NCBI GenBank assembly: GCA_000310025.1
Contig: FN648909.1
Location: 1-22,472, forward strand
Source: Ectocarpus siliculosus
Lineage: Eukaryota > Sar > Phaeophyceae > Ectocarpales > Ectocarpaceae
Direction: 5' to 3'
Length of the DNA: 22,472 bases
The translations under genes and the position numbers were made by a program. Shown here piece after piece: positions 6,740 to 22,472 of this stretch; the stretch's first letter is position 1; every line of letters begins with the position of its first letter. The notes under the pieces were generated by a model, which ran no database searches, had not been told where the DNA came from, and saw only the letters and a program-made list of their open reading frames with translations.

Positions 6740-6962
6740 AGTCTTTTAGTTGGTATCCTCGAAAATCTTCTAGTGGACAAGGTCAGGGGTTCGAATCGTG
6801 GCGTGAGCGAGCTTTTCTTTCTATAAACATCGATGGCAAATCACCGCAGGAGGGGTGGCTTGGGGACGAGAAACTTTCTCTGTGGTCACGAGTGGGAGCA
6901 AACGGCACAAATATAATGCTGTGATAGGCACTGATGTTTTGAAGTGAAAACCAAAACATGCA
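6740..6962 (+). mobile_element. tRNA-derived SINE, copy 1
   Basis: The head carries degraded internal RNA polymerase III promoter boxes: an A-box remnant TTTTAGTTGG (6744-6753) and a B-box GGTTCGAATCG (6788-6798, one change from GGTTCGAATCC). The head and a body of about 150 bp match copy 2 at 18324-18635 in the same order (AGCGAGCTTTTCTT, then ACCGCA, AACGGCAC, AATGCTGTGA, TTTGAAGTGA). Copy 2 has about 95 extra bases just after the head. The sequence is not a functional tRNA gene. Confidence 0.7.
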
Positions 6963-7506
6963 TTATATACTCATACGGTGGAGCATCGCGGGCGGTGGGT
7001 CATAAGTTGATAGAGGTCGAGTAGGTCTGCGAGAACGGCTGATGACGTGTGCGTGCGCCCATGTTGATGCTGTCAATCATGTTCATGTAGGGACGTGCGT
7101 ACAGTATATACAGTTCGGGACCTCTACACTAGATCATTTCCTTTCGTGGGTAATGAAAACTTCGTGTTCAATGCATTTGTCCCTACCAAGACGCGCGTCA
7201 CCAATCCATCCTGCATTCGGTGCGCCAATAACCCTTGTTTTTTTCGTGGAAATTTTTTGACGATACCAACGATTGATTGTAACTTGATGCAGAGTTGCTG
7301 TTGTAGGAAGAAGAATATAGTGGCTTAATGGCGGTCGTCTCTGTTGATATCATTGAGTGTCACTTGTTCAGCACGTGACAATGCTGAGACGAGGCATATG
7401 AACATCTTAACTACGATCGTCCCCGCCCGCGTCATGGGTCGATTTCGGAAGACGCGGTATGAAAAGTTGGTCGAGGGTCCAATAGGGGGAATCCCTGGTA
7501 TTGCTG
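6963..7506. other. Sequence flanking the copia insertion, no gene recognised
   Basis: About 540 bp of unique-looking sequence. The short ORFs here have no recognisable content. Its right end, joined to 13034 onward, reconstitutes the site before insertion (GCTG-CATAC-TACATTAACG). Confidence 0.5.
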
Positions 7507-7511
7507 CATAC

Positions 7512-7731
7512 TGACAGCAGTTCAGCAGTTGTCTGGGCTGCCGTGTGCTGCTGTGTAGTTGGCAGTAGTGGCGCAGTTTGGGTAGATAAACACAGAGTGA
7601 TTCATTAACATACAAAGCGACCAAGCCTGCCTTCACCTGACGGTTACAGACTTGAAGTCACGCCTTCACAATACTGCACAAAACCCATGCAGTAGAATAG
7701 AGTCAGTTCTTGCACTACAATACTCCTGACA
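7512..7731 (-). repeat. 3' LTR of the copia element
   Basis: 220 bp, identical to 12809-13028. It is bounded by the target duplication CATAC on its outer side and by a purine tract on its inner side. It should hold the RNA 3' processing site. Confidence 0.96.
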
Positions 7732-7825
7732 TGTCCTCTCAAGAGCTACGGCATTCTAATTCTGAAATACAAGACACGATCTTCTCTCTCTCAATGTCCT
7801 CTCAAAACGATATCAATGTCCTCTC
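7731..7825 (-). promoter_or_regulatory. Copia polypurine tract region, motif present three times
   Basis: On the minus strand GAGAGGACAT lies at the edge of the 3' LTR (7731-7740, its last base being the first base of the LTR). The same 10-mer recurs at 7794-7803 and 7816-7825 in the same orientation. The first, next to the LTR, is the likely plus-strand primer; the others may be duplicates or extra primers. Confidence 0.55.
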
Positions 7826-7959
7826 CAACAAATGTCTACGAATACGTGCTTTCTGAATAACTCAAAAACGATACTCACTAACTGCCATAGTTTTCAAGCA
7901 GCGAAATGTTTTCTTCTTATCATACGAATGCTCTTCCAACCGAAATCTCCAACTCATGC

Positions 7960-10900
7960 TCACACTCCAAGCAACAGAAGGCGGTTCTGCAGGAACTTCA
8001 CAGCTCCCGAACTCTTGGTGAGGATGTCCGCCCTCTGCAGGTTGGTTTCGATATACTCGACATCTACCACTTGCTTTTCTACAAGAGACCGAACATGGTG
8101 AAATTTGACATCGATGTGCTTGGTGCGCGGGGTGATTTTCGCGCTCCTGCTAAATGAGACAGCACCAGAGTTATCCTCGAAAACGACGGTTGCCTGCTCC
8201 TGCTTCTGATTCATGGACTCTAGCAGGTTCCGGAAGTGGATGACCATGACGCACCCCTTTGACAGTGCGACGTACTCGGCCTCTACCGTCGATATAGCCA
8301 CCACCGTTTGCTTCTTCACCGTCCATTCCACCGGGCCACCTGCAAAGTACAAAACAACACCGGTAGTGGAGTACCCGTTGTCTAGGTCACCGGCGTGGTC
8401 AGAATCCACATATGCCGTTAGGTTGTCTCCGTCGTCGGCGTCCTCGCGGTATGTGATCCCGATGGAGGTCGTCCCCTTTAGGTACCTGAGTACCCGCTTC
8501 AGCTTCACCATTGCTCTGGGACCGGGCTTCGCCATGCTCTTCGCTAGTACCATCACCGAGTGAGTAATGTCCGACCTCGAGCCCCGGCTGAGATACAGGA
8601 GGCTTCCTACGGCGGACCGGAAATACGTGGTGTCCTCTGGAGACAGAACCGCCTCCTCCACGATGCTGATCGGTCCGGGCTCAGCCGGAGTCTTCGCCGA
8701 GCGAGCATCGGCCGTTCCGAACTTGTCAAGCACGGCGTTCGCGTACGTGTTCTGCGAAAAGAGGATCACCCCGGCGTCGATGTTCCTTTCAATCGCCATG
8801 CCGAGGAGGAACTTCGCATCTCCAAGGTACACCGTGTCGAACCGCTCCTTCAGCTGTTCGATAACTGTCATCACCAGATCCTCGTCGCTCCCCGAAAATA
8901 GGATGTCGTCGACGTACACGAGAAGGAGAACCTCTCCCGCGTTGAGGCTGTATAGACAGGGATCCGCCGGGCTCCGAACGAATCCGATCTCCATCAGATA
9001 CTCGTGGAAGGTGCCGTTCCAGCCTTTCGGGGAGAGACGCAGCCCGTACAGCCACGCCTTAAGCAGCCACACCTGCCGTGCTTGTTCCGGAGAACACTCG
9101 AATCCTTTCGGAGGGATTACGAAAATCGGTTTCGCATTCTTGGGGACCCGTGCATGCAGGAACGCCGTCTTGATGTCGGCTTGCTTTAGAACAAAACAGT
9201 TTTGAGCAGCGTTAGCGACAAATAGATGAACTGTTTCCATCGACGCCACAGGCGCTGCCTTATCTTCGCCCGTGTCAGCTTGGTGAAAACCTTGAACCAC
9301 AATGCGGCTCTTGAGACGAACAGGTTCTCGGTCTTGGTTGTATTTTACCTTGAATAGGTATTTGGCCGGAAGCGCCTGAGCACCCTCCGGCAGGTCTACC
9401 CAGTCGAACACGTCATGCTCGACCAGTGATCGTCCTTCGTCACGCATGCTTTCTTTCCACGCGTCAGCATCCGGTCCACTCACCGCTTGGCTGTAGTTGG
9501 CCGGGTCAGGGGGCATGTAGCCCGCCTCACCGGGGCTTCCTGTCCCGGTGGCTCCGAGTACACTCCCAGTAAGCAAGGAATACTCCATCCGCTCGTACGC
9601 CTTCTCCGCCGTGTGCAGATCCATAACCGTTCGTGGCACGGGGTTCCTGCCGCTCCGGCGAAGGCCTGGCTCCTGCTGCTGGGGCGTCGGTTCCATCCCG
9701 CCATCGTCCTTCTGTTCTTCTTGATTTTCTTCTTCGTCGATCGTTTCCTCCCAGCCGGGCTGGTAAATTATCCTGCCGGGCTCGGGCAGCGGGTCCGCTC
9801 CTACCTTGGGGGGAACCACGTCGCGCGGGTCTTTCTCGCGGAAGGACACTTCGCCGGAGTTGGTGATCTTCGAGGGTTCTGTGGGGTCCCAAAGCCTGTA
9901 CGACCTGCTCTTAGAGTTGTAACCAACCAGATACATCTTCTTGGCCCTGGCGGCAAGCTTGTTGGGCCGGAACCTCGCTTCCTCGTGCTTGAAACAGACC
10001 GAACCAAATTCGTGCATGTGCTTCAAGCTGCCGAGCGGTTTGCCTTCCCATACCTCAAGTGGTGCCTTGCCGTCCAATGCTTCCGTGGGTGTGCGGTTCA
10101 GGATGTAGATTGCGGTCTTAAAAGCTTCAGCCCACAGGCGGCCCGGGAGATGCGGTGCACCCAAGAGGAGGCGGCGCGTCGTGGCTATAACAATGCCAAA
10201 ACCACGCGCGGCGATGGCGTTACCCTCAGGGACGTACGGGGCGTTGGTCGTGATTTTGATTCCAAGTGATTGTGCCAACGCGTCGAACCTTCCCTTGAAT
10301 TCGGCCCCTCCATCGCAGTTAACTGTATCTAGGCAAATTCCTAACGGGTCAGCAACCTCCTTGACAACCGTTTCCAGCCCTTCGGCAGCTTCATCTTTCG
10401 TTTTGATGGGAATCCCCCACCTCATGCGCGAGTTGTCGTCCGTAAACATCACTGCGCGCCGGCTACCACCGTATGACTCTTCAGAATGCGGCCCCCACGT
10501 GTCGACGTGCACGAGCTCAAGCCGTGCGTCGGCGCGAGGACGATCAGACGGAGGGTGGCTGCTCTTCTTGCTGTTTCCGGCGGAACATACCTCGCAATCT
10601 CCGGACTCGATGTTTCGGTTGAATTTTACTCCCGAGTGCTCCTTGTCCGCCAGCAGCTGGAGAGCGCGCGGGTTGCAGTGGCCCATCCTCCGATGCCACA
10701 AGTGCGCGTCGACCTTGGTGCGAAACAGTTTCGCGGATCCGTCCAGGCTCACGTCGTCGACGATGATATTGACCACGTACATCCGCGGTACTTCTTTCGA
10801 GATGGGAAACGCGTGCTGACCGCCGCGAAGAGCTGGCGGGGTAGACATCAGATCACACAGCACCCCCTTTTCTTCCAAAGCTCCAACCGAAAATATGTTT

Positions 10901-12765
10901 GCTCCTAGGTCCGGTACCAGGAGAACTTCCAGCGACACAGGGATTGTTTCGTTCTTATCGTTCCGTAGGCCAAATTTTAGCTTGCCTTTCTGGGTTGCGT
11001 TGGACTGGCCACAGGACCCTTCGACTTGAACGTTGCAGGCGTACCTCTCGCCTACGTGCGTTGCGGCAGGGGATTCGGCCCAAACCATGTGGCTTGATGC
11101 CGCGGTGTCTATGAACACTGTCGTACTTTCAAGGGACTTGACCTGTTCCTTGACTTGAAAAACGCTGGTGAATGCAACGGTCTCCGTTGCACCAGGGGCT
11201 TCCTCCACCTGAACGTGCACGGCGGCGGGCTCATCGTCCATCGCCACTCCAGGCGTCTTCAGCGCCTGCACGTCACCAACAGCATCAGCGCGCTCCTCAG
11301 GCGGCGCCACAGCAAGCGCTTCTAGCACCTGCGTATCTCCAGCAGCGCAGGCCTTGGGCTGCGCCACAGCAGGCGCCTCGAGTACCTGCGGATATCCAGC
11401 AGCGCGCTCCTCGGGCTTCGCCGCAGCAGGCGCCTCCAGCACCTGCGTATATCCAGCAGCGCGCTCCTCGGGCTTCGCCGCAGCAGGGACTTCTGGCACC
11501 TGCGGGTATTCAGCGACGCGCTTCTCTGCTTGCGTCGCGGCGGGCACTTCTTGCACCCGCGGGCAGTCATCGATTATAATTGAGAAGTCTTCTAGACCCT
11601 TGCTACCTCCCCGGACCTGCGTGAACCATGCCTGAGTGGTGGTGGATTCCTGCGATACGTTTGCCTGTTCTTTGGCGTCCTCCGCCTCATTCGAGAGGCG
11701 AAGAGGGCAGTTTTGCCACTGGTGCTCGGTCGAATTGTGGCAGTACCTGCAGCGTCTCTTGCGGTCTTGGCCATTCTGCTGACCCCGTCCTCGACCTCCA
11801 CCGGAGTTTTGGTTGCCGCGATCTTTTCCGCGTGCACCTTGGGCGCTGCTAGCGCCACGTCCTCCTGATGGGTTCCCGTTCGAGTTGGTTCCACCGCTGC
11901 TGCTGTTGCCGTTCGAGCTGTTGTTCCCGTCCGCGTTCCTGCCGCCATTTCCTCGGCGGTTGCGTCCACGTCCACCGTGTTTACGGAACTCGCGTGCTCC
12001 TCCATGCACGGTCGTGTTGAGCGCACGGCCGTGGCTTCCAGGGCCGTCGTCATTGGTAGTATCCTTGCCCCTGATCTGCAGAGAGTGGAAAGCAGTGGCT
12101 CGGTGTGCCACACGTTCAAAATCCAAGTTCAAATCGGAGTTGTCGTCTCGCGACTGCTCGCACACCAGCGCAGCTTTGAATTGTCCGTATTGCTGGTCAG
12201 GTAGCGCGTTCAAGAAGGTGTGGGTTTTGCGAGTCGACACGACCTTGTCACCAAGCGCTTCGAGCTCTGCGGAAATGCGGCGCAACTCTTGGATTGCGCG
12301 CGCGGGGTCGTATTTGTCGGCGGCTGTGACGGACAGGGCTCCTAGCTGTTGCTGCAGCTCTTGCATCCTAAACGCTCCAGTCTTTCGGTACTTTGCTTCC
12401 AGGGCGAGAAATGCAGCACGTCCGTCACCCCACTCCTCAGGATAAACGGCGTTGAAGGACCCTACGACTAGAGACGCAGCACTCTGAAATCCCTCGGCGC
12501 ACTCCGACGTCGCTAAATCAAGCCGCGTGAACAGCCTACCGTTCTTTTGTTTGAAAGCACGCTTCTTGGTCTCGTACGCCGCGACCGCATCCGCCGTGCC
12601 ATCCACCGGAGCTTCCGGAGCCTTCTCGGTCCCAGACATAACCTCGCCTAGGCCGGTCTCGTACATGATCGAGCGGAACAAACTCGACCATCTGTGGTAC
12701 TCATTAGGATTTCCGTTGAACGGGACGTATCCTTGCTTGAAGATGTTTGCAGACGACGTAGACAT
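7960..12765 (-). CDS. Copia Gag-Pol polyprotein (1601 aa), integrase catalytic Glu replaced by Ala
   Basis: A single frame encoding all copia functions. The start at 12765 is fixed by in-frame stops just upstream (TAA, TGA). Residues 1-230: Gag. 255-337: Gly/Asn/Arg-rich RNA-binding region. Zinc knuckle C339-x2-C342-x5-H348-x4-C353, one residue longer than the usual x4. 402-527: 19-residue tandem repeats (QVLEAPAAAKPEERAAG type). Protease active site D553 (IDTAASSH). Integrase zinc module H691-x4-H696...C724-x2-C727, then core D755 and D818. The third catalytic position, expected Glu in the NGVAER-like motif, is Ala853 (NAIAARGF; codon GCG, plus strand 10207-10209). Reverse transcriptase has D1197 (QADIKTAFLHA) and YVDD 1284-1287. 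RNase H has D1454, E1495 and D1531. No frameshift separates Gag from Pol. As it stands this copy should make RT and RNase H, but its integrase should be inactive. Confidence 0.96.
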   Translation of the reverse strand: MSTSSANIFKQGYVPFNGNPNEYHRWSSLFRSIMYETGLGEVMSGTEKAPEAPVDGTADAVAAYETKKRAFKQKNGRLFTRLDLATSECAEGFQSAASLVVGSFNAVYPEEWGDGRAAFLALEAKYRKTGAFRMQELQQQLGALSVTAADKYDPARAIQELRRISAELEALGDKVVSTRKTHTFLNALPDQQYGQFKAALVCEQSRDDNSDLNLDFERVAHRATAFHSLQIRGKDTTNDDGPGSHGRALNTTVHGGAREFRKHGGRGRNRRGNGGRNADGNNSSNGNSSSGGTNSNGNPSGGRGASSAQGARGKDRGNQNSGGGRGRGQQNGQDRKRRCRYCHNSTEHQWQNCPLRLSNEAEDAKEQANVSQESTTTQAWFTQVRGGSKGLEDFSIIIDDCPRVQEVPAATQAEKRVAEYPQVPEVPAAAKPEERAAGYTQVLEAPAAAKPEERAAGYPQVLEAPAVAQPKACAAGDTQVLEALAVAPPEERADAVGDVQALKTPGVAMDDEPAAVHVQVEEAPGATETVAFTSVFQVKEQVKSLESTTVFIDTAASSHMVWAESPAATHVGERYACNVQVEGSCGQSNATQKGKLKFGLRNDKNETIPVSLEVLLVPDLGANIFSVGALEEKGVLCDLMSTPPALRGGQHAFPISKEVPRMYVVNIIVDDVSLDGSAKLFRTKVDAHLWHRRMGHCNPRALQLLADKEHSGVKFNRNIESGDCEVCSAGNSKKSSHPPSDRPRADARLELVHVDTWGPHSEESYGGSRRAVMFTDDNSRMRWGIPIKTKDEAAEGLETVVKEVADPLGICLDTVNCDGGAEFKGRFDALAQSLGIKITTNAPYVPEGNAIAARGFGIVIATTRRLLLGAPHLPGRLWAEAFKTAIYILNRTPTEALDGKAPLEVWEGKPLGSLKHMHEFGSVCFKHEEARFRPNKLAARAKKMYLVGYNSKSRSYRLWDPTEPSKITNSGEVSFREKDPRDVVPPKVGADPLPEPGRIIYQPGWEETIDEEENQEEQKDDGGMEPTPQQQEPGLRRSGRNPVPRTVMDLHTAEKAYERMEYSLLTGSVLGATGTGSPGEAGYMPPDPANYSQAVSGPDADAWKESMRDEGRSLVEHDVFDWVDLPEGAQALPAKYLFKVKYNQDREPVRLKSRIVVQGFHQADTGEDKAAPVASMETVHLFVANAAQNCFVLKQADIKTAFLHARVPKNAKPIFVIPPKGFECSPEQARQVWLLKAWLYGLRLSPKGWNGTFHEYLMEIGFVRSPADPCLYSLNAGEVLLLVYVDDILFSGSDEDLVMTVIEQLKERFDTVYLGDAKFLLGMAIERNIDAGVILFSQNTYANAVLDKFGTADARSAKTPAEPGPISIVEEAVLSPEDTTYFRSAVGSLLYLSRGSRSDITHSVMVLAKSMAKPGPRAMVKLKRVLRYLKGTTSIGITYREDADDGDNLTAYVDSDHAGDLDNGYSTTGVVLYFAGGPVEWTVKKQTVVAISTVEAEYVALSKGCVMVIHFRNLLESMNQKQEQATVVFEDNSGAVSFSRSAKITPRTKHIDVKFHHVRSLVEKQVVDVEYIETNLQRADILTKSSGAVKFLQNRLLLLGV
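11185..11562 (-). repeat. 57-bp (19-residue) tandem coding repeats in copia Gag-Pol
   Basis: Within the linker between zinc knuckle and protease, units begin at residues 421, 440, 459 and 478, each 19 residues long; more diverged units lie on either side (about 402-420 and 497-527). The core is QVLEAPAAAKPEERAAG. The repeat is Ala/Pro/Glu-rich and probably unstructured. Confidence 0.85.
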
Positions 12766-12792
12766 GATGACTCGATGTCATTACCCACCAAA

Positions 12793-12808
12793 CGCTAGGC
12801 TCATAACC
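12793..12808 (-). promoter_or_regulatory. Copia primer-binding site, matching the anticodon arm of a tRNA-Met
   Basis: Directly after the 5' LTR the minus strand reads GGTTATGAGCCTAGCG. Its complement, CGCTAGGCTCATAACC, has the layout of a tRNA anticodon arm: stem CTAGG, seven-base loop CTCATAA with anticodon CAT, then the start of the 3' stem. Drosophila copia is known to prime from an internally cleaved initiator tRNA-Met whose 3' end lies in this arm, and its site begins GGTTATGGGCCC. The match suggests the same half-tRNA priming here. Confidence 0.7.
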
Positions 12809-13028
12809 TGACAGCAGTTCAGCAGTTGTCTGGGCTGCCGTGTGCTGCTGTGTAGTTGGCAGTAGTGGCGCAGTTTGGGTAGATAAACACAGAGTGATTC
12901 ATTAACATACAAAGCGACCAAGCCTGCCTTCACCTGACGGTTACAGACTTGAAGTCACGCCTTCACAATACTGCACAAAACCCATGCAGTAGAATAGAGT
13001 CAGTTCTTGCACTACAATACTCCTGACA
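12809..13028 (-). repeat. 5' LTR of the copia element
   Basis: 220 bp, reading TGTCAGGAG...CTGCTGTCA on the minus strand. It is identical to the copy at 7512-7731. It should contain the promoter and the RNA start; I see no clear TATA box. Confidence 0.96.
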
Positions 13029-13033
13029 CATAC

Positions 13034-13439
13034 TACATTAACGTTGGTAGGAACGCAGACAGGTATTCCTACCGCGCTAACCGTTTTGGAGGGGGGCATG
13101 TACAAAGTTTGATCTCGACTCTGCTTTCACAGGTGTGCATCATTCTTGGTGTGACCAAGTTTCATGAGGACATTCCCGGGTATCTTGCACCTACTGTAGA
13201 ACGATTGCAACGATGCGACCGGAACTATTTAGGTGGACAATGCCACTACACTAGGCAAATCACGCTTGTGATCATCGATACCTGACGAAGCAAATTTGAG
13301 TCGCATAAGCAAACAAGCAGCCGTGCATCTGTGCAGCAGCATCTTCCATTTTGTGCATAAATCCGGTTTGTCATGCTGGGAAGGTGTAAACGGAAGTTGT
13401 TTGTAGTTGGGTCGCCGGGTGTGTTGTTTGTGGCAACCT
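13034..13439. other. Flank on the other side of the copia insertion, no gene recognised
   Basis: A short open frame around 13120-13285 has no recognisable domain and, in the longer version, begins inside the LTR. No RNA gene or repeat was seen. Confidence 0.45.
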
Positions 13440-14193
13440 TACAAATTATATTTTAATTGATATTGAACAGTTGTGCTGGTTGGGCGAGCGCCACGTGAGA
13501 TACCCTGTGGGTTCGGACGCACTGCGAACGACACAAACAACCGTGTGTGTGCGCCAGAGGGAGCTCACACATGCGGGCTATAAAGCGAGAGCCAGTAAGT
13601 ACGGTGCTCCGCGCGCGGTCCAATGAAATGGGGGCGGCGACAAACAGGCGGCGGTTGTCGGAGTGGACGTTGAAATATAAAAAATGGAAATATAGTGGAC
13701 CAGGCCCAAGATCAATATTACTCGAAAGCTCAAAACGGGGGTGTCGATGTCGTAGGCTACGGGGGTCGACAGTAGAAGACACGAGCTGCGGGGGAGCAAC
13801 AATAGTACGTGCTCGCAGGAGCTCAAAAGGTAGCGGAAGAAAACACGGTAAGGCTACAGAGGAAAGTAGGCAGCATGGTCGAGCGCCAAACACAAAAGCG
13901 TAGGCCAAAACTTATCACGCCAGCAGACGGCTGTAAGAGCGAGGTGTTTGGGTGGCAACGGCGTCCAAAATAGAAATAAGGCTATAGCGTCAGATGCGCA
14001 AGAAGTAACACAAGAACAAACAAACACAAAAAAAACGATACAAAAAACAAATACAAGGTACAAACCAGCGCCAGGGTCGTAACCAGCCAGGGGCAGATTG
14101 CACCATGGTGGAAAGAGCTGCTGACATGGCGAGGGAATGTATGCAAACAAGAAAACAAGAACAGACGGTCGCCGGTGTCCCAACAAGGTATTT
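13440..14193 (-). other. Probable 3' non-coding remnant of the minus-strand gypsy fragment
   Basis: After the coding fragment ends at 14194, the minus strand runs into a T-rich region with GTTTGTTTG runs (about 14005-14055), as the gypsy element at the left window edge does after its own stop. No polypurine tract or LTR start was found, so the left boundary near 13440 is approximate. Confidence 0.4.
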
Positions 14194-14700
14194 TCACCGG
14201 GCAGTGGCTGAAGGCGGTGCTGTGGTTGCTGAAGCGGGCGCCGTTGTGGTCGAAGTTGGAGCTGTTGTGGCTCCTCGGGATTCGTCGACGTTCCTCCGGA
14301 TGCCACGCATGAAGGAGCTGTTGCGATGTACTTGCAGACACCAGGAACCGCAGACGGCGTGATGTTGGGAGCTGTAGTGGCCGGGGGCGAGGGAGATCTT
14401 GATCGGCCCGGGGTCGTCAAGGAAGCGGACGATGTAGAGGTCAGCAGTGGTGGTGTGTCGCGATATTTTGCCCAACCACCAGAGCGCATCTTTGGCTTTG
14501 TACCAGAAGTAAGCTCCTACGGGTATGGCGGTGGCGCTGAAGCGGCGGATGTAGGTGTCGCGGGGCACGTAGGTGTAGCCAGGTGAAGACGCCCGTTCTC
14601 CTTTGGAGCGGGAGAGTTCTCGAGCAGCGGCTCCTATGCGCATGTTGCGGTACAGACGGTTTTGTCTCTGACTATTTTTGCTTCTTCTGCTTTTGTATTA
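14194..14700 (-). pseudogene. Gypsy Pol C-terminal fragment with the Tudor-like domain
   Basis: Translation from just inside an in-frame stop (TAA at 14698-14700) gives a sequence clearly related to the C-terminus of the gypsy frame at 1-1278. QRNRLYRN and RELSRSKGER match QGNRTYRV and RELARNRGER. PVGAYFWYKAKDALWWLGKI then YIVRFLDDPGP match the Tudor-like domain, and HAVCGSWCL matches DAVCGSWCL. The tail after it differs (Thr/Ala/Pro-rich TTAP repeats). The similarity stops near 14697, where the upstream chromodomain and integrase should be, so the copy is 5'-truncated. The Met at 14643 is inside the homologous region and is not a true start. Confidence 0.8.
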
Positions 14701-15098
14701 ATTTGAGCTTTTTTCTTGTGCTTTTCTTGCGTATCCGGAACTATCCTGGCGTCACACCGTCGTTCTTCGTGACCCCCTTGCAATCGATAGACCCCCCGGC
14801 CTTTTCTTCTCTCTTTATCTGCTTGCTTATGTAGCTCTGCCCCTGCTTCTATCTTTGGACGTTTTTCGCTCTTCTTTGCTCAGCTTTCATAGCCACTGTC
14901 AGCCTGCACGCTGCTTGCCCCAGCTTTCTCCTATTTCAATTCTGCCCTTTTGCTAGCCGAGAGCGTAGCTCTCTTGAAATCCACGTAGAGGTGTGGGAGA
15001 GGTTTGTGAGGCTCCTTATCCTCGAGTCTAGAGTAGATGCCTCAGATGGATTGTTATCTCCCCCTCTTCAGGTTCTAGCCTCTGCGTATATGTCCCCT
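14701..15098 (+). other. Probable plus-strand gypsy 3' non-coding tract
   Basis: T/C-rich sequence with no gene. It leads up to the same polypurine-tract/LTR boundary seen at 2537-2554, so it is probably the 3' end of another gypsy copy in plus orientation, lying head to head against the minus-strand fragment. Confidence 0.35.
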
Positions 15099-15228
15099 CA
15101 GGGTGGGCTAGTGTTATGGTATTTGGACCCTTGGACTAAGATACCATCTGGGCGGGTATATCTTTCTGGAAAATCCCGACCACCTGCCCAGGTTCCCAGC
15201 ATTCCGACTTTAGGCAGGTAGCAGTACA
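15099..15228 (+). mobile_element. Second gypsy polypurine tract and LTR start
   Basis: CAGGGTGGGCTAGTGTTA at 15099-15116 is identical to 2537-2554; the LTR would start at 15112. Downstream the two sequences are diverged, but both have hairpins (here ACCTGCC at 15182-15188 with GGCAGGT at 15213-15219). A possible end is GTACA at 15224-15228, which is uncertain. Confidence 0.35.
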
Positions 15229-15800
15229 ATGGTTACTAGCAGTAGCAAGAGAGTGAAAGCGTTCCACCTTGCTCAGTGTTTTGCCTGGTGTTCCCTGGTG
15301 TCTTGCCTGGGAGTGAGCGATAGCGAGCGACTGAGAGAGAAAGGAAGGATAAGGAAGGAAACAGACTGAAGAAGCGAAGCGGCTCCTACCTGCACACAGT
15401 GGTCGGACTAGCTCCACACTAAACACGCGTCAGAGATCGTCACATCTCGTCACATCTACCTGTAGAGGAGACGGGAGGGCTCCAGATTGTACGTCGTTGA
15501 CTTAAAACGGTTTGACCCTTCGGGTCCATTTTTGTTCAGCCTGCCTTTTGTGGGTAAGATAGCCTGTGACCACGGCAATCGACCGGTCAAGTGTTTGATC
15601 AGTACGGACAGCTAGTGGTACCGCGTAAAGAGATCGGAACGGTTTTTGTTGTGAAGACACCACCAACAACCCTTACGCCCGTGCCGACTACGAAGGGCCG
15701 ACCAATGACACCTCTTTTAGCCTGATTGTTTCGTGTGTCTACTGCTGCATATAGAGGTGCGCGACGACCGCAGGAATGCAGTTGTATACCGACAACCAGT
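15229..15800. other. Non-coding sequence upstream of the D27-like gene
   Basis: No ORF with recognisable content and no RNA gene. The region includes runs of short GA-rich repeats near 15300-15370. It may contain the promoter of the downstream gene, but no motif stands out. Confidence 0.4.
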
Positions 15801-16638: not shown

Positions 16639-19600
16639 GAAGGAGTTGCACAGCTGAGACCGCCGCTTGCGGCGGATTTCTGCAGCGAGAGCTTGCTTGA
16701 CAAGGTAAGACAGACGCAGGCATACGAGTCGGCCGCCTTGTACACCCCCTTCAACTCGTGCTGCTCGCTTGTACAGCTTGCTTGTAACGGTGCACCCCCA
16801 CGTCTTTTCTTCAAATTCGGATTCTCCTCGCACACCTGGATTCCCTGTGGATTCCCTGTGGACACGATATCCACCAAGGCGTCTTCGGCTGTTTTCATCC
16901 GCACAGCGACCCAATGGTAGCGTGGGTTGCGTCGTAAACCTACTGATTGCAGATGTGGGTGCGAATCTCTCTCGGGAGTGAAGAAATGGCAAATCTGCGG
17001 TGGAAAGCGATATTATTTACGGTCCGCGCACAACAATTTGTGCATTCACGTTTTGTGCGATAACTTTCTTTTGAAAAAGAATTGAAACGTGAAACAACGA
17101 TGGTCGTGACCGCCTCGTCGAGATACGTCGATATCTGCAGAGTTTTTTTTGTTCTGACGATATGCAACAATTTTGACAACAATCATACACGGAACTCCCT
17201 GAACACGACATACATCCCCTCTGCATTCACGGAACCCCCGACCGTACCCCCGAAGCCCCCCCTCACCCTCTACATTACGGACACCACATGCTTGCATTTG
17301 TACAGATACCACGCAGACGCATGATCGACAACACCGTTGGGCGTTAAAAGGCACAATATATGAACATTGACGGGTCTATACATGTACATAAACCTATACA
17401 AACACTCGGGGGCAGTCAATCGTAAGGGGTAAGTGCTGAAAATAAGTAGAAGGCCAACATGAAAGAAACAGAAACATGCACAAGGCGCACAACAATCCGG
17501 CAAAGCTACCACGAACTTAAACACACACACACATCACGACGCAGCGTTCTCGGCCACGTCCATCAAAAATGCGCCGTCGTGGCCATCCGAGAGCGCGTCA
17601 TCAGCGCCGGGAGATGGAAAATCATGTTGCAATGCCGGCTTCGGCTTCTTCGAAATCGCCCGACCATTGGCTCTGCGGCTGCCGAACTTCTTCTTCTTAT
17701 CCCGTCCCCTAGGCTTCCCCATGGTGCTTGCGTGCTTGTTTCGTGTTTTGGGCCGCAACGTGTGCGTGTTGTGTGCGCGTGCGTGTTGCCCCATCCAAAA
17801 AAACATTTCCCATGGGGACGGCACAACAAAATGTGGAATATCGCGGAAACCAGATTTTTCCCAACAAAACCCAGTAATACCGACCTAGATACTGAGGAGA
17901 GGAATCGATTGCCGCCATTTATTTTGAAATCGGTCGGTTGGTTATCACCCAAAAAAGATTTCAAACTGATGCTCTACTGTCGATTTTTGAGCGATATCTC
18001 CGTCAATTCACAAAATTTCGAAAAAAAAAAAAGCCCGACCTGGCAAATTGCGAGACGCGTTCGAATCCGTAGAGTTTTTGTAAATCGGCATAGAACACGC
18101 CCCTGGAAAAAAGAATTCAAGTTTTCCCGGTTTTGTGCCGATAAAAAGTCAAGAAAAAAGAAAGAAAGAAAAACTTTCCGTCACTCCATGCGCCTGGAAA
18201 CAGGGCGTTTGCCGGTACTTTCAGATGTCGGAACAACCACCTGTGTGCAGAGAAAAGTTGTCATTTGTGCCGGGAATGTTTTGGATTTTCTGTTGTGCAC
18301 GGACTACAGGAGTATGCACGGTCGCCCCGGTGGTCTAGTTGGTATCCTCGAAACCTTCTAGAGGTCAGGTCAGGGGTTCGAATCCCGGCGTAAGCGAGCT
18401 TTTCTTGCAAAGTGAGTTGTTTCTCTCGCTTCCGCTCCTGGCCTAGTGGATAGCGCTAGTTCGTGTGTACACAGAGGGAAGCGAGTGCTGAACTCTTCTC
18501 GCATTAAAAATCGAAGGCAACGTACCGCAAAGGGGACGGTAGAGAGGGGCCCTTCTGTGTGACCACGGGTTGGAGTATAACGGCACTAATGCTGTGAGCC
18601 CTGATTTGAAGTGAGGACAAGAACAAAAATGCACAGTATCAAGGGAAGGGTGCTTTTTCGCGTTGTTGTCGAAGGCAGTCGCCGCAGACGGAAGGAGGGA
18701 CAGCGACAAACCACGTCGTCCCTGTGCTGCCTTCCTTCTGTGCGATCCCGGTTGCTATGTTAAACAATAAACGAACGGTGTCCACTATAGAACAGAACAC
18801 ACACTCAACATACCCCAGCGTTGCTCAAGTTCTTGGTCTCGCGATTTTTATCTTGAAAGTGCGGGCAAGTGTTAGAGGCCCCCGTTCCTTCCCACGGGGG
18901 GGCTACCGTGCCCACCCACAGTAGTAAGAGTTGATCTGGGGACTATGTTCGCCCAGGACCGATGCAGATGAGTAAAACCTTGATTATCACACACAGTGTC
19001 CCTTCCAGCACGACATAAGTACAGTGAACACATGTGCGTGCTCTCTCTCGATGGGCCCCGCACTTGGACCCCCAATAGCATACCCCCCACACACATATAC
19101 TCTCCAGATGGGATCTTGCATCCAAGTGCCCCAAACAGCAAGCACTAAGCATGCATTGCCCCAATTGAACTTGCACACCGCGTGTGCCTCCTTATGTAAC
19201 CCTTGACATTTGGTCTAAAAACCAAGTCACATAAACCATTGCCCTCCATGCTTGTGTGCTTCGTTGTTGGACCTCCTTTGTGCTGAAGGTCGCGCTAGCG
19301 CTGTTCCGGGTTCTCGTCCAGAAAGAGATCGGGTACAAGTCGGAGGAGCCTGGCTATGCCGGCCTCATCGACGAAGCCCAAAACTACATGGTGATACAGG
19401 CGAGTTCGGCCCCCGTTTTGGCAATATATGCGCGTTGCCATCATTGCATGGCCACCCACCCGAGGGAGACGTCAAGGTGGCTTGTTGAAAGACATTTCCT
19501 TGTAGTGGGGGCTGGCGGCGGGGTGCCCACATTTTGCCAATGCTTGCCCAAGCCACACACAGTCACAGGAGTCGTGGCTTGTTGAAAGACATTTCCTTGT

Positions 19601-21614
19601 AGTGGGGGCTGGCGGCGGGGTGCCCACATTTTGCCAATGCTTGCCCAAGCCACACACAGTCACAGGAGTCGTGTTATTGTTCTAAAGAGTAAGTAGGGTA
19701 ATTCGCGACTGTCGTTCAACCGAGCGGCCTTCAAAGAGGAAAAGCGGTGTCAACCTTTCGCCACGAGGCTCTCGCAGGTGTACCCGATTTGTGCGATGGC
19801 GTGGAGAGCGAATTGAGTTCTGATGACTTTCGGTGTCATCATTGACGGCAAGTCCAAAGATTGATAAGTCGTAGCTCTTTTTCATTCGACGACCCCATTG
19901 AACGACGTCGCTTCAATGCATGTGCATAGATTTCCCTGGATCTTGCATGCGCATTCACTTGGTTTTGTTGTGGCCATACACCCTTGAGGGAATTGCTTAA
20001 GCTTCGGCTCTTGGCCCGACCGTACCGTCCTTGCCGCCTAGCAGCCGCTTTGCGAATACGTTTCCCGATTTACTTTGCACAGCCTGTTGAGGCACGTGTG
20101 CGTTCCCCTCCCCTCCAGTTCCTTTGTGCCTAGGCATGCTGCGCATAGCGCTTATTGCGGCACATATTGTTGGTTTGTCGACGTCTCCCACGAGTATACC
20201 CGCACGAACCCTCACACACCCCTTCCCGCCCCCGTACCTTATTGTGCATGGTGAATCGCCAGGGCGCCTCAGTGGAAGATCAGCAAGACATGGCCGTTCG
20301 AGTTCTGACCACTATCGCCGGCCCCGCTGTTCCCCCTGTGTACAAGCTGTTCATGGCACCATGGCCGTGGGCACCTTTCCTGACCGCGTTTTTCACACCT
20401 CCCTTTTTCAAGGTACTCGCTACGCGCCCCTCTTGGAATGCTTGGTTTGGTACGTGCTTGGCTGTTGCAATGACGGAGTTTCTTTCCCAAACATGTACGC
20501 AAAAGGGTGCCTCGTTGAGAACATTTGTTGTACAGTGGATGCCTATCACTGTATTTGGCTGTTTGCGAAATGTCTGGGTCCGGATGTGTGATGCCTTTTT
20601 TCCTTCGTATTCGGATCCACGAATTTGAATCGACAAGCGAGTTGACGGTGTGCTGTAGCCTAATGTTTTCCTCGAATGACTTCCTGCTGTTCTTTGACGT
20701 ACGAAAGGCAGTACCGCACGGTGTCATCCTCTACTTTGGCTTCCCCTAATCGACCGTGTGGTATTTTCTTTGTTTCTTCATGGCGTCCCTGGCCGTATTT
20801 TTTCTGGAGTTTCTCGTCGGTCCGAACAAGCTTGACGCGCGAAAGGATGACACCCCCGGCGGTGTGTTCGTGGAAAGGTGTCGATTTTTGGAGGAGACCA
20901 ATTGCAAGGTGAGGTGTTACTGGTGATGCCGCTCTTGGTTTGCCCGCTTTATAGCCGCCGTAGCTCCCCCAACCCGCAACACTCATCGCTTGCGCTCGGG
21001 CCATGGCATGTCACCTGGCGGAAATTTACAGTACGGGCCATTGTTTGTTGTCGACATTCATGTCCAGCCACGGTTCCGTAGTACTTCTTTTTTCGGGACC
21101 TGACCATTGAGGCGTTTCGCTGCCAGCAAGCGTAAGCAGACTGTTTCTCAAAATGTTGTCACCCGCTACACCGCGCCCCCACCTTTCTCGATCCCTAAAC
21201 ACGCAAGTCGGCGGCTTGTCGTCGTAATGTGTTGCGAGGGTGTCAGGGTTAGGGCTCCCCGTAACTCAATAGCATGATGGTCGAAATTTCCCTGCTAGTT
21301 GCCCCCGGCCTGTGTTTCTCTTGGCGCAAAGACCCAAGTACCTAACATTCCTCTTGTGTGGCACGCCTTACATGCAACGGGGTCAGGGGTTGTGCACAAA
21401 CATGTGCAAGATCCCGACCGAACGTTTTTTCGAGGAGACGCTGGGCCTGACGATGGCGATGGAGCCAGACTTCGACACGTACGAGTGCCGCCTGAGCTTC
21501 GGCCTCGAGTCGCCCGCGATGGAAGAGGACGACACAGTTCCTCGTGGCTGCCTATCTGGCTGCAGCTGCAAGGAGCTCGGGGCCGTGGTGGCTACCACGT
21601 GTTCGAAACAGTAG
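16639..21614 (+). CDS. D27-like: D27-like (DUF4033) carotenoid-isomerase-family protein, five exons, 5' end uncertain
   Basis: Plant D27 is a plastid iron protein that isomerises all-trans/9-cis beta-carotene, the first step toward strigolactones; algal relatives have unproven roles. Exons: 16639-16704, 19289-19390, 20263-20412, 20810-20908 and 21387-21614, all joined in phase 0 at GT-AG sites (donors AAG|GTAAGA, ATG|GTGATA, AAG|GTACTC, AAG|GTGAGG). They give 214 residues. Exons 1 and 2 join as SLLDK|VALALF, matching the family's WFDQLAI segment, then GYKSEEPGYAGLIDEA. Exon 3 ends PPFFK and continues FLVGP as in family FFxWLVGP. The Cys-rich signature CRFLEETNCK|GLCTNMCKIP spans the last junction, followed by FFEETLG, MEPDFDTYECRLSFG and a C-terminal CLSGC. 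Exon 1 could instead start at 16643. Introns are large and hold a SINE and a tandem duplication. The N-terminal targeting part is not secured. Confidence 0.85.
18324..18635 (+). mobile_element. tRNA-derived SINE, copy 2, within a D27-like intron
   Basis: The head has a clean A box TGGTCTAGTTGG (18331-18342) and B box GGTTCGAATCC (18375-18385), about 32 nt apart as in tRNA genes. The acceptor-stem ends do not pair, so it is not a working tRNA. The body matches copy 1 (6740-6962). A segment of about 95 bp at 18407-18501, absent from copy 1, contains a second A-box-like stretch TGGCCTAGTGG (18439-18449) but no B box. The element sits in the first D27-like intron (16705-19288) in the same orientation as the gene. 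Confidence 0.75.
19477..19673 (+). repeat. Exact 97-bp tandem duplication in a D27-like intron
   Basis: Units 19477-19573 and 19574-19670 appear identical base for base, starting GTGGCTTGTTGAAAGACATT and ending GTCACAGGAGTC. They are followed by the first three bases of a further unit. They lie in the intron between the exons ending at 19390 and starting at 20263. The lack of differences implies recent origin or an assembly artefact. Confidence 0.95.
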
Positions 21615-21901
21615 ACAGATTCCAAGTTCTCGGTATGTATTCGATCCCCTCACGAGATTGCTGCCTTTCTCATAGCCGTATCTGCGAACACAACAATCAG
21701 TTTATTTTGTTTTCTTTCGAATTGCTTCATTATTTCTTCGGTTTCTAGGCTACGTGTTGGGGAGAGAGACGCACGAAACGCTCATCGTCTCTCCGGCCGC
21801 GTTAGCTGCAAAGGCCGGCGTCAACTCTTACAAATCCATCTCTCTCCCCACAAATACTAGCCGGGGGACTACGACTGCAAACGCAGGAGTCCCAAAACTG
21901 A
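21615..21901 (+). other. D27-like 3' untranslated region with a probable intron
   Basis: Eighteen bases after the stop comes a strong donor (TTCTCG|GTATGT, GT at 21633-21634). A pyrimidine-rich tract and acceptor follow (TTTCTAG| at 21742-21748), giving a 116-nt intron in the 3' UTR. The exon after it starts GCTACGTG. An open frame of 63 codons inside it has no recognisable content. A possible AATAAA signal is farther on, at 22224-22229. Confidence 0.45.
21701..21901 (+). repeat. Direct repeat of about 200 bp, copy 1
   Basis: The block from TTTATTTTGTTTTCTTTCG to CAGGAGTCCCAAAACTGA is repeated at 22270-22472. The two copies differ only by two 1-base insertions in the second (AAAA for AAA, CCC for CC). 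It includes the intron tail, the acceptor and the following exon. Confidence 0.95.
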
Positions 21902-22269
21902 CCAAGTCCTCAAATGGTACACACCATTCTACAACACCTGACTAGATACCGAATATTCCCGAACTTATGCCCCCACCTTCGAAAGAAAAGGGATGGGAGG
22001 GCGGGATTTTCTAAACTGCCGCCGCTACTGCGTTAGGCGGCTGCTGCTGTCCTTCCGTTGCTTCACGCGCTCTGTAGCTGTCACACGTTACCCGACTTTG
22101 CTACAGCCCCTGCGTGGACTCGATCACGGAATGACACCCCCAACTATAGACTAATAATTCCAAACACCGTGACCCTGGGTTTCCGGTAGAAAATGAAGCC
22201 AAATTCTAATTCGACTGTTACAAAATAAACACCAGTTTATTCTATCTGCTTCGACGAACAAACCTTCCT
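21902..22269. other. Spacer between the direct repeats, no gene recognised
   Basis: About 370 bp with no ORF of note. It contains an AATAAA at 22224-22229 that could serve the gene upstream. Confidence 0.45.
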
Positions 22270-22472
22270 TTTATTTTGTTTTCTTTCGAATTGCTTCATT
22301 ATTTCTTCGGTTTCTAGGCTACGTGTTGGGGAGAGAGACGCACGAAACGCTCATCGTCTCTCCGGCCGCGTTAGCTGCAAAGGCCGGCGTCAACTCTTAC
22401 AAATCCATCTCTCTCCCCACAAAATACTAGCCCGGGGGACTACGACTGCAAACGCAGGAGTCCCAAAACTGA
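22270..22472 (+). repeat. Direct repeat of about 200 bp, copy 2, reaching the window edge
   Basis: The same block as 21701-21901 at a distance of 569 bp. It may continue past the window end, so the true repeat length is unknown. Confidence 0.95.

What the first reader, a model, noticed from the sequence alone, without database searches (positions are those of the whole stretch)
10207..10209. Young, otherwise intact copia element lacks the integrase catalytic Glu (Ala853)
The integrase core shows D755 and D818 in canonical contexts, but the third catalytic position reads NAIAAR where copia families have an xGVAER-like motif with Glu. Ala853 follows D818 after 34 residues, matching the D-D35-E spacing within one residue. 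The codon is GCG, one base from a Glu codon. Yet the LTRs are identical and the target duplication is perfect, so the copy integrated very recently. Either the change arose in the last replication cycle or just after insertion, or the copy was mobilised in trans by a sister element, or the base is a sequencing error.
Basis: partly seen in the sequence, partly recalled or inferred. Interest (0 to 1): 0.75.

Follow-up and report, generated by a model that had tools for sequence, protein, structure and literature searches.

The report
Private integrase mutation in decaying retrotransposon
One copy of a Copia-type jumping gene, probably in a brown alga, carries a single-letter change that removes a key residue of the enzyme that inserts it; every related copy that was read keeps that residue, so this looks like ordinary decay of one copy and not a new kind of element.

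Summary
Codon 10207-10209 (minus strand) reads GCG, Ala853, exactly where the integrase DDE glutamate belongs. Its explanation is ordinary. The assembly holds seven copies of this Copia family at 95% DNA identity or more over the searched stretch. All six sisters carry Glu at this codon. So do all 28 other places of the clade that were read, sisters included, and 36 of 37 public homologues; the 37th does not cover it. The Ala is therefore private among copies read. It is one of 17 single-copy differences in this copy, 10 nonsynonymous and 7 synonymous, which neutral decay does not exclude. Identical LTRs do not prove a very recent insertion: they are only 220 bp, and if all 17 changes arose after insertion, identical LTRs would still be seen about one time in five. 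None of the six sisters has an open frame across the compared stretch, so 7 of 7 copies look defective. Best reading: a single-base mutation after insertion or in the last reverse-transcription cycle. Assembly error and trans-mobilisation are not excluded but lack positive support. A relocated active site is rejected.

The parts
7507..7511 (.). target-site duplication CATAC, left
7512..7731 (-). 3' LTR, 220 bp, TG...CA termini, identical to the other LTR
7960..12765 (-). single gag-pol ORF, 1601 aa; CCHC knuckle, PR, IN, RT (RVT_2), RH
   Evidence: motifs of knuckle, PR and RH by eye, states
10039..10707 (-). integrase zinc-binding and catalytic core searched in the genome (residues 687-909)
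10207..10209 (-). codon 853, GCG (Ala), at the DDE glutamate position; Glu in 6 of 6 sister copies
10312..10314 (-). codon 818, second catalytic Asp
   Evidence: residue; coordinates by arithmetic
10501..10503 (-). codon 755, first catalytic Asp
   Evidence: residue; coordinates by arithmetic
12809..13028 (-). 5' LTR, 220 bp
13029..13033 (.). target-site duplication CATAC, right

Best explanation
This is a normal Ty1/copia retrotransposon copy that was inserted by an active, presumably Glu-bearing integrase (the TG...CA ends and perfect 5-bp target duplication show integrase-made insertion; that the enzyme had Glu is inferred). It has lost the integrase glutamate by one private base change. 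The change arose either after insertion, as ordinary host mutation of an unselected copy, or as a reverse-transcription error in the last cycle, when the integrase was still made from a Glu-encoding RNA. In either case no helper element is needed. The copy's own integrase is expected to be catalytically dead (inferred from the known role of the DDE triad, not tested). It could move again by integrase only if it borrowed one.
For: Six of six sister copies have Glu with one and the same codon. So do 28 of 28 other places of the clade that were read, sisters included, and 36 of the 37 public homologues, the one left not covering the codon. Ala853 is the only private residue of this copy in core 677-905. 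It is one of 17 single-copy differences, 10 nonsynonymous and 7 synonymous; the neutral expectation is about 70-75% nonsynonymous among non-stop changes, and P(7 or more synonymous of 17) is 0.10-0.22. Other copies decay likewise: sister C9 also has identical LTRs and carries two in-frame stops. Zero differences in 220-bp LTRs has probability 0.21 even if all 17 changes came after insertion.
Against: A hit on the DDE triad is not the likeliest fate for 10 nonsynonymous changes (chance about 2%; about 13% for any of the 21 motif sites listed). The finding was selected because it hit such a site. The window copy is also the only one of seven with an open frame across the compared stretch, which decay alone does not predict to coincide with a catalytic missense. 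Zero LTR differences favours, by about 5 to 1 at most, that few of the private changes came after insertion. Reads were not available.
Confidence: 0.82

Rival explanations
1. Base-calling or polishing error at one position of a small contig; the real copy has Glu.
For: The window is the whole of a short 22-kb contig, C343 of 492 contigs. Three sisters show frame breaks without in-register stops (C138, C26, C465), which could reflect assembly quality.
Against: The change sits among 17 private differences with ordinary transition/transversion make-up (11:6), and the 1601-aa frame is undisturbed. At an assumed accuracy of 99.99%, only about 0.5 errors would fall in 4.8 kb (own estimate, no call).
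Confidence: 0.1
2. The Ala arose before the last cycle, and this copy was mobilised in trans by integrase of Glu-bearing sisters, so the Ala lineage is a non-autonomous one.
For: Trans-mobilisation is inferred for other Copia elements: Tos17 of rice lacks gag (PMC3977881, passages read), and Ectocarpus has Copia families with only a gag-like ORF (PMC12477816, passages read). An internally deleted copy of this same family without integrase has complete LTRs and a perfect target duplication (C96, L073).
Against: No second Ala copy among 7 family copies read. The C96 deletion could itself be later than insertion. A private change needs no helper.
Confidence: 0.06
3. The active site has moved, so that another acidic residue replaces Glu853 and the integrase still works.
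For: The domain shows no other private lesion, and Glu847 lies six residues upstream.
Against: Glu847 is present in all six sisters together with Glu853, so it is not a compensation. No other private residue of this copy lies in core 677-905. Alignment and model place Ala853 at the canonical position.
Confidence: 0.01

Closest known systems
Ty1/copia (Pseudoviridae) retrotransposons of brown algae; nearest named proteins from Ectocarpus sp. CCAP 1310/34 (P0003 etc.)
   Same: Integrase before RT in one ORF, HHCC and D,D of the integrase; the eleven closest public rows have 63-75% identity over the integrase.
   Different: This one copy has Ala in place of the triad Glu; none of the 36 public relatives that cover the codon does.
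Defective proviral or retrotransposon copies with a missense change in an essential enzyme residue (general kind; recalled)
   Same: Complete ends and an open frame, with one inactivating private change.
   Different: Nothing beyond which residue was hit.
Tos17 of rice and gag-only Copia families of Ectocarpus, non-autonomous (PMC3977881, PMC12477816; passages read)
   Same: Elements lacking one essential function.
   Different: Those lack whole genes and are established elements or families; here a single residue is changed in a single copy.

Membership tests
Ty1/copia LTR retrotransposon | integrase upstream of reverse transcriptase; RVT_2-type RT | tested here: met
   Pfam: gag_pre-integrs 677-730, rve 750-846 (28.2 bits, below its curated cut-off of 32.6), RVT_2 1118-1362 (168.4 bits)
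Ty1/copia LTR retrotransposon | LTRs with TG...CA ends and a short target-site duplication | tested here: met
   220-bp identical LTRs, CATAC on both sides
Ty1/copia LTR retrotransposon | primer binding site and polypurine tract | not tested
   not examined by any search
catalytically competent DDE integrase | HHCC zinc-binding motif | tested here: met
   H691, H696, C724, C727
catalytically competent DDE integrase | RNase H-like core fold | tested here: met
catalytically competent DDE integrase | D, D and E of the triad | tested here: not met
   D755 and D818 present, Ala at 853. All three residues are present in 6 of 6 sisters, though in C5 and C23 the integrase is cut by a stop
trans-mobilised non-autonomous lineage | several copies sharing the defect at independent sites | tested here: not met
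   1 of 7 family copies in this assembly has Ala; other strains not examined

The most novel reading that the evidence does not exclude
The only one of the seven copies with a continuous gag-pol frame encodes a full-length but catalytically dead integrase that could still join intasomes. It may persist because it acts as a trans-dominant brake on its family: a self-encoded, missense form of copy-number control.
Probability: 0.02. Interest if true: 0.6.

Novelty: new member of a known kind. Interest (0 to 1): 0.12.

Why it matters
As found, it matters little. It is a clear example that an open reading frame with identical short LTRs does not mean a working retrotransposon, and that 220-bp LTRs give little resolution for dating. 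If the dominant-negative reading were true, it would be a simple way for an element family to limit itself.

Tried and rejected
Relocated active site: rejected, because no other private residue of this copy lies in core 677-905 and the model and alignments place position 853 canonically. The fold comparison gives ranges only, so the residue-by-residue placement rests and on the secondary structure. None of the 50 rows shown is a Ty1/copia integrase, which says nothing either way.

Empty site or second allele: the flank searches gave matches to repeats. No listed match covers the parts next to the element (6957-7510 and 13029-13572). The assembly as searched therefore offers no empty site to compare; only 40 of 2295 and 40 of 1800 candidates were scored there.

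Base rate in more distant Copia families of this genome: not obtained, see below. One search scored 150 of 474 candidates and cut out 30 loci; the codon was read at 28 places from these (window included) and at one more (C25, L041). L026 ends before the codon, and L029 and L030 are one place. At least two further partial places of the clade that span the codon (C24:942987, C34:489213) were not cut out and not read. Two of the 28 places depart from D,D,E: the window copy, and L011, which reads Glu at the first Asp.

Other long ORFs of the window (four given to Pfam) matched no family.

Literature on Glu-less Copia integrases: searches listed nothing on point by title or abstract start; led to the Ectocarpus and Tos17 papers. 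Passages only were read. This is not a claim that nothing is in print.

Dropped data: columns with a gap in any of the seven copies, or with more than two letters, were left out of the private-difference count. Codons with a gap were also left out when effects were classed, which leaves 163 of the 176 singletons. C465, C5 and C23 contain blocks that MAFFT placed poorly, so their counts are less reliable than those of the other four copies. C5 alone supplies 72 of the 176 singletons. Sister frames were examined only over the stretch matching window 7807-12607.

Full report
What is there. The window is the whole of contig C343 of a 189-Mb, 492-contig assembly. No organism is named. The closest named proteins come from Ectocarpus sp. 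CCAP 1310/34, so a brown alga is likely (inference). A Ty1/copia element lies at 7512-13028 on the minus strand. It has two identical 220-bp LTRs, a CATAC duplication on both sides and one 1601-aa ORF with gag-pre-integrase, SH3-like and RVT_2 matches above the curated cut-off and rve and Pol_BBD matches slightly below it.

The test that decides. In the same genome, 7 places match window 9307-11107 at 95% DNA identity or more, the window included. All six sisters have Glu at the codon, with one and the same codon. Counting the more distant places (about 59-76% identity over the parts aligned), 28 of 28 places read other than the window have Glu: 27 from the 30 loci and C25. One locus, L026, ends before the codon, L029 and L030 are one place, and at least two partial places were not cut out. 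Of 37 public homologues, 36 cover the codon and all 36 have Glu. Ala853 is therefore private to this copy among all that were read.

How ordinary it is. Over window 7807-12607 this copy has 17 single-copy differences from its six sisters, against 9 to 72 in the others. Of its 17, 10 change the protein and 7 do not. The neutral expectation is about 70-75% nonsynonymous among non-stop changes, and 7 or more silent of 17 has probability 0.10-0.22 under neutrality. Pooled over seven copies the classed singletons are 109 nonsynonymous, 45 synonymous and 9 stops. The chance that 10 nonsynonymous changes touch one of three triad residues is about 2%, and about 13% for any of 21 listed motif sites. 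That is uncommon, but the finding was picked because it hit one.

Dating. Identical LTRs were read as proof of a very recent insertion. With 2 x 220 bp the resolution is poor. If all 17 private changes came after insertion, 1.56 LTR differences are expected and none is seen with probability 0.21. The 95% limit from 0 of 440 allows about 33 changes in the compared stretch. The other six LTR pairs measured show 0 (C9), 2 (C138), 2 (C26), 1 (C465), 2 (C5) and 2 (C96) differences. C9, also with identical LTRs, has two in-frame stops, so young-looking LTRs and a broken coding region can go together in this family.

State of the family. In the compared stretch no sister is open throughout: C9, C5 and C23 have in-frame stops, and C138, C26 and C465 have frame breaks, some of which could be assembly errors. 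C5's LTR pair spans 9.9 kb, and only one LTR of C23 was listed. So 7 of 7 copies look defective as assembled. C96 is an internally deleted copy lacking integrase, with complete LTRs and a perfect duplication.

Mechanism. The TG...CA ends and the perfect 5-bp duplication mark integrase-made insertion (sequence, read through established knowledge of integrases). The DDE carboxylates hold the catalytic metals (PMC11054761, passages read), so this copy's own integrase is expected to be inactive (inferred). The simplest history is one base change after insertion or in the last reverse-transcription cycle, neither of which needs a helper. Earlier origin with trans-mobilisation is possible, since Tos17 and gag-only Ectocarpus Copia families point to the principle (PMC3977881 and PMC12477816, passages), but no sister shares the Ala. 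Assembly error cannot be excluded without reads.

Verdict. Confirmed as an observation; ordinary as biology.

Noticed in passing
window 11101-11109 (codons 553-555, minus strand); loci L001-L028, L041; P0002-P0014, P0032: The protease signature is D-[T/S]-A in place of the usual D-[S/T]-G across this clade: 26 of 26 distinct genome places read have Ala at the third position (25 with Asp first, one with Asn), as do 8 of 11 covering public relatives, 3 having Gly. A lineage-wide change in an active-site motif may be more interesting than the finding given.
   Followed up: partly
L073 (G000:C96:90950-93500): Internally deleted copy of the same family: LTRs with 2 differences, perfect 5-bp duplication, lacks the stretch equivalent to window about 9031-12372 including all of integrase, with 16 bp shared at the junction.
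   Followed up: partly
window 13573-15454: A repeat whose first 1.09 kb (13573-14665) is inverted relative to its second part (14663-15454) when compared with 5 of 5 fetched copies (L068-L072), with 2-3 bp overlap and about 14 nt missing at the junction; looks like a twin-priming 5' inversion of a LINE, or a local inversion.
   Followed up: partly
window 11220-11567: Six diverged copies of a 57-nt (19-aa) tandem repeat inside the ORF between the gag knuckle and the protease.
   Followed up: no
L011 (G000:C489, about 997895-998545): A related copy (about 66%) with Glu in place of the first catalytic Asp of the integrase.
   Followed up: no
window 6780-6819 and 18367-18406: A 40-nt repeat (93%) containing GGTTCGAATC, which resembles a tRNA B box (recalled motif); perhaps tRNA-derived SINEs.
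   Followed up: no
window 19477-19670; 21692-21854 and 22261-22423: A perfect tandem duplication of 97 bp, and a 163-bp direct repeat with start-to-start spacing of 569 bp near the contig end.
   Followed up: no
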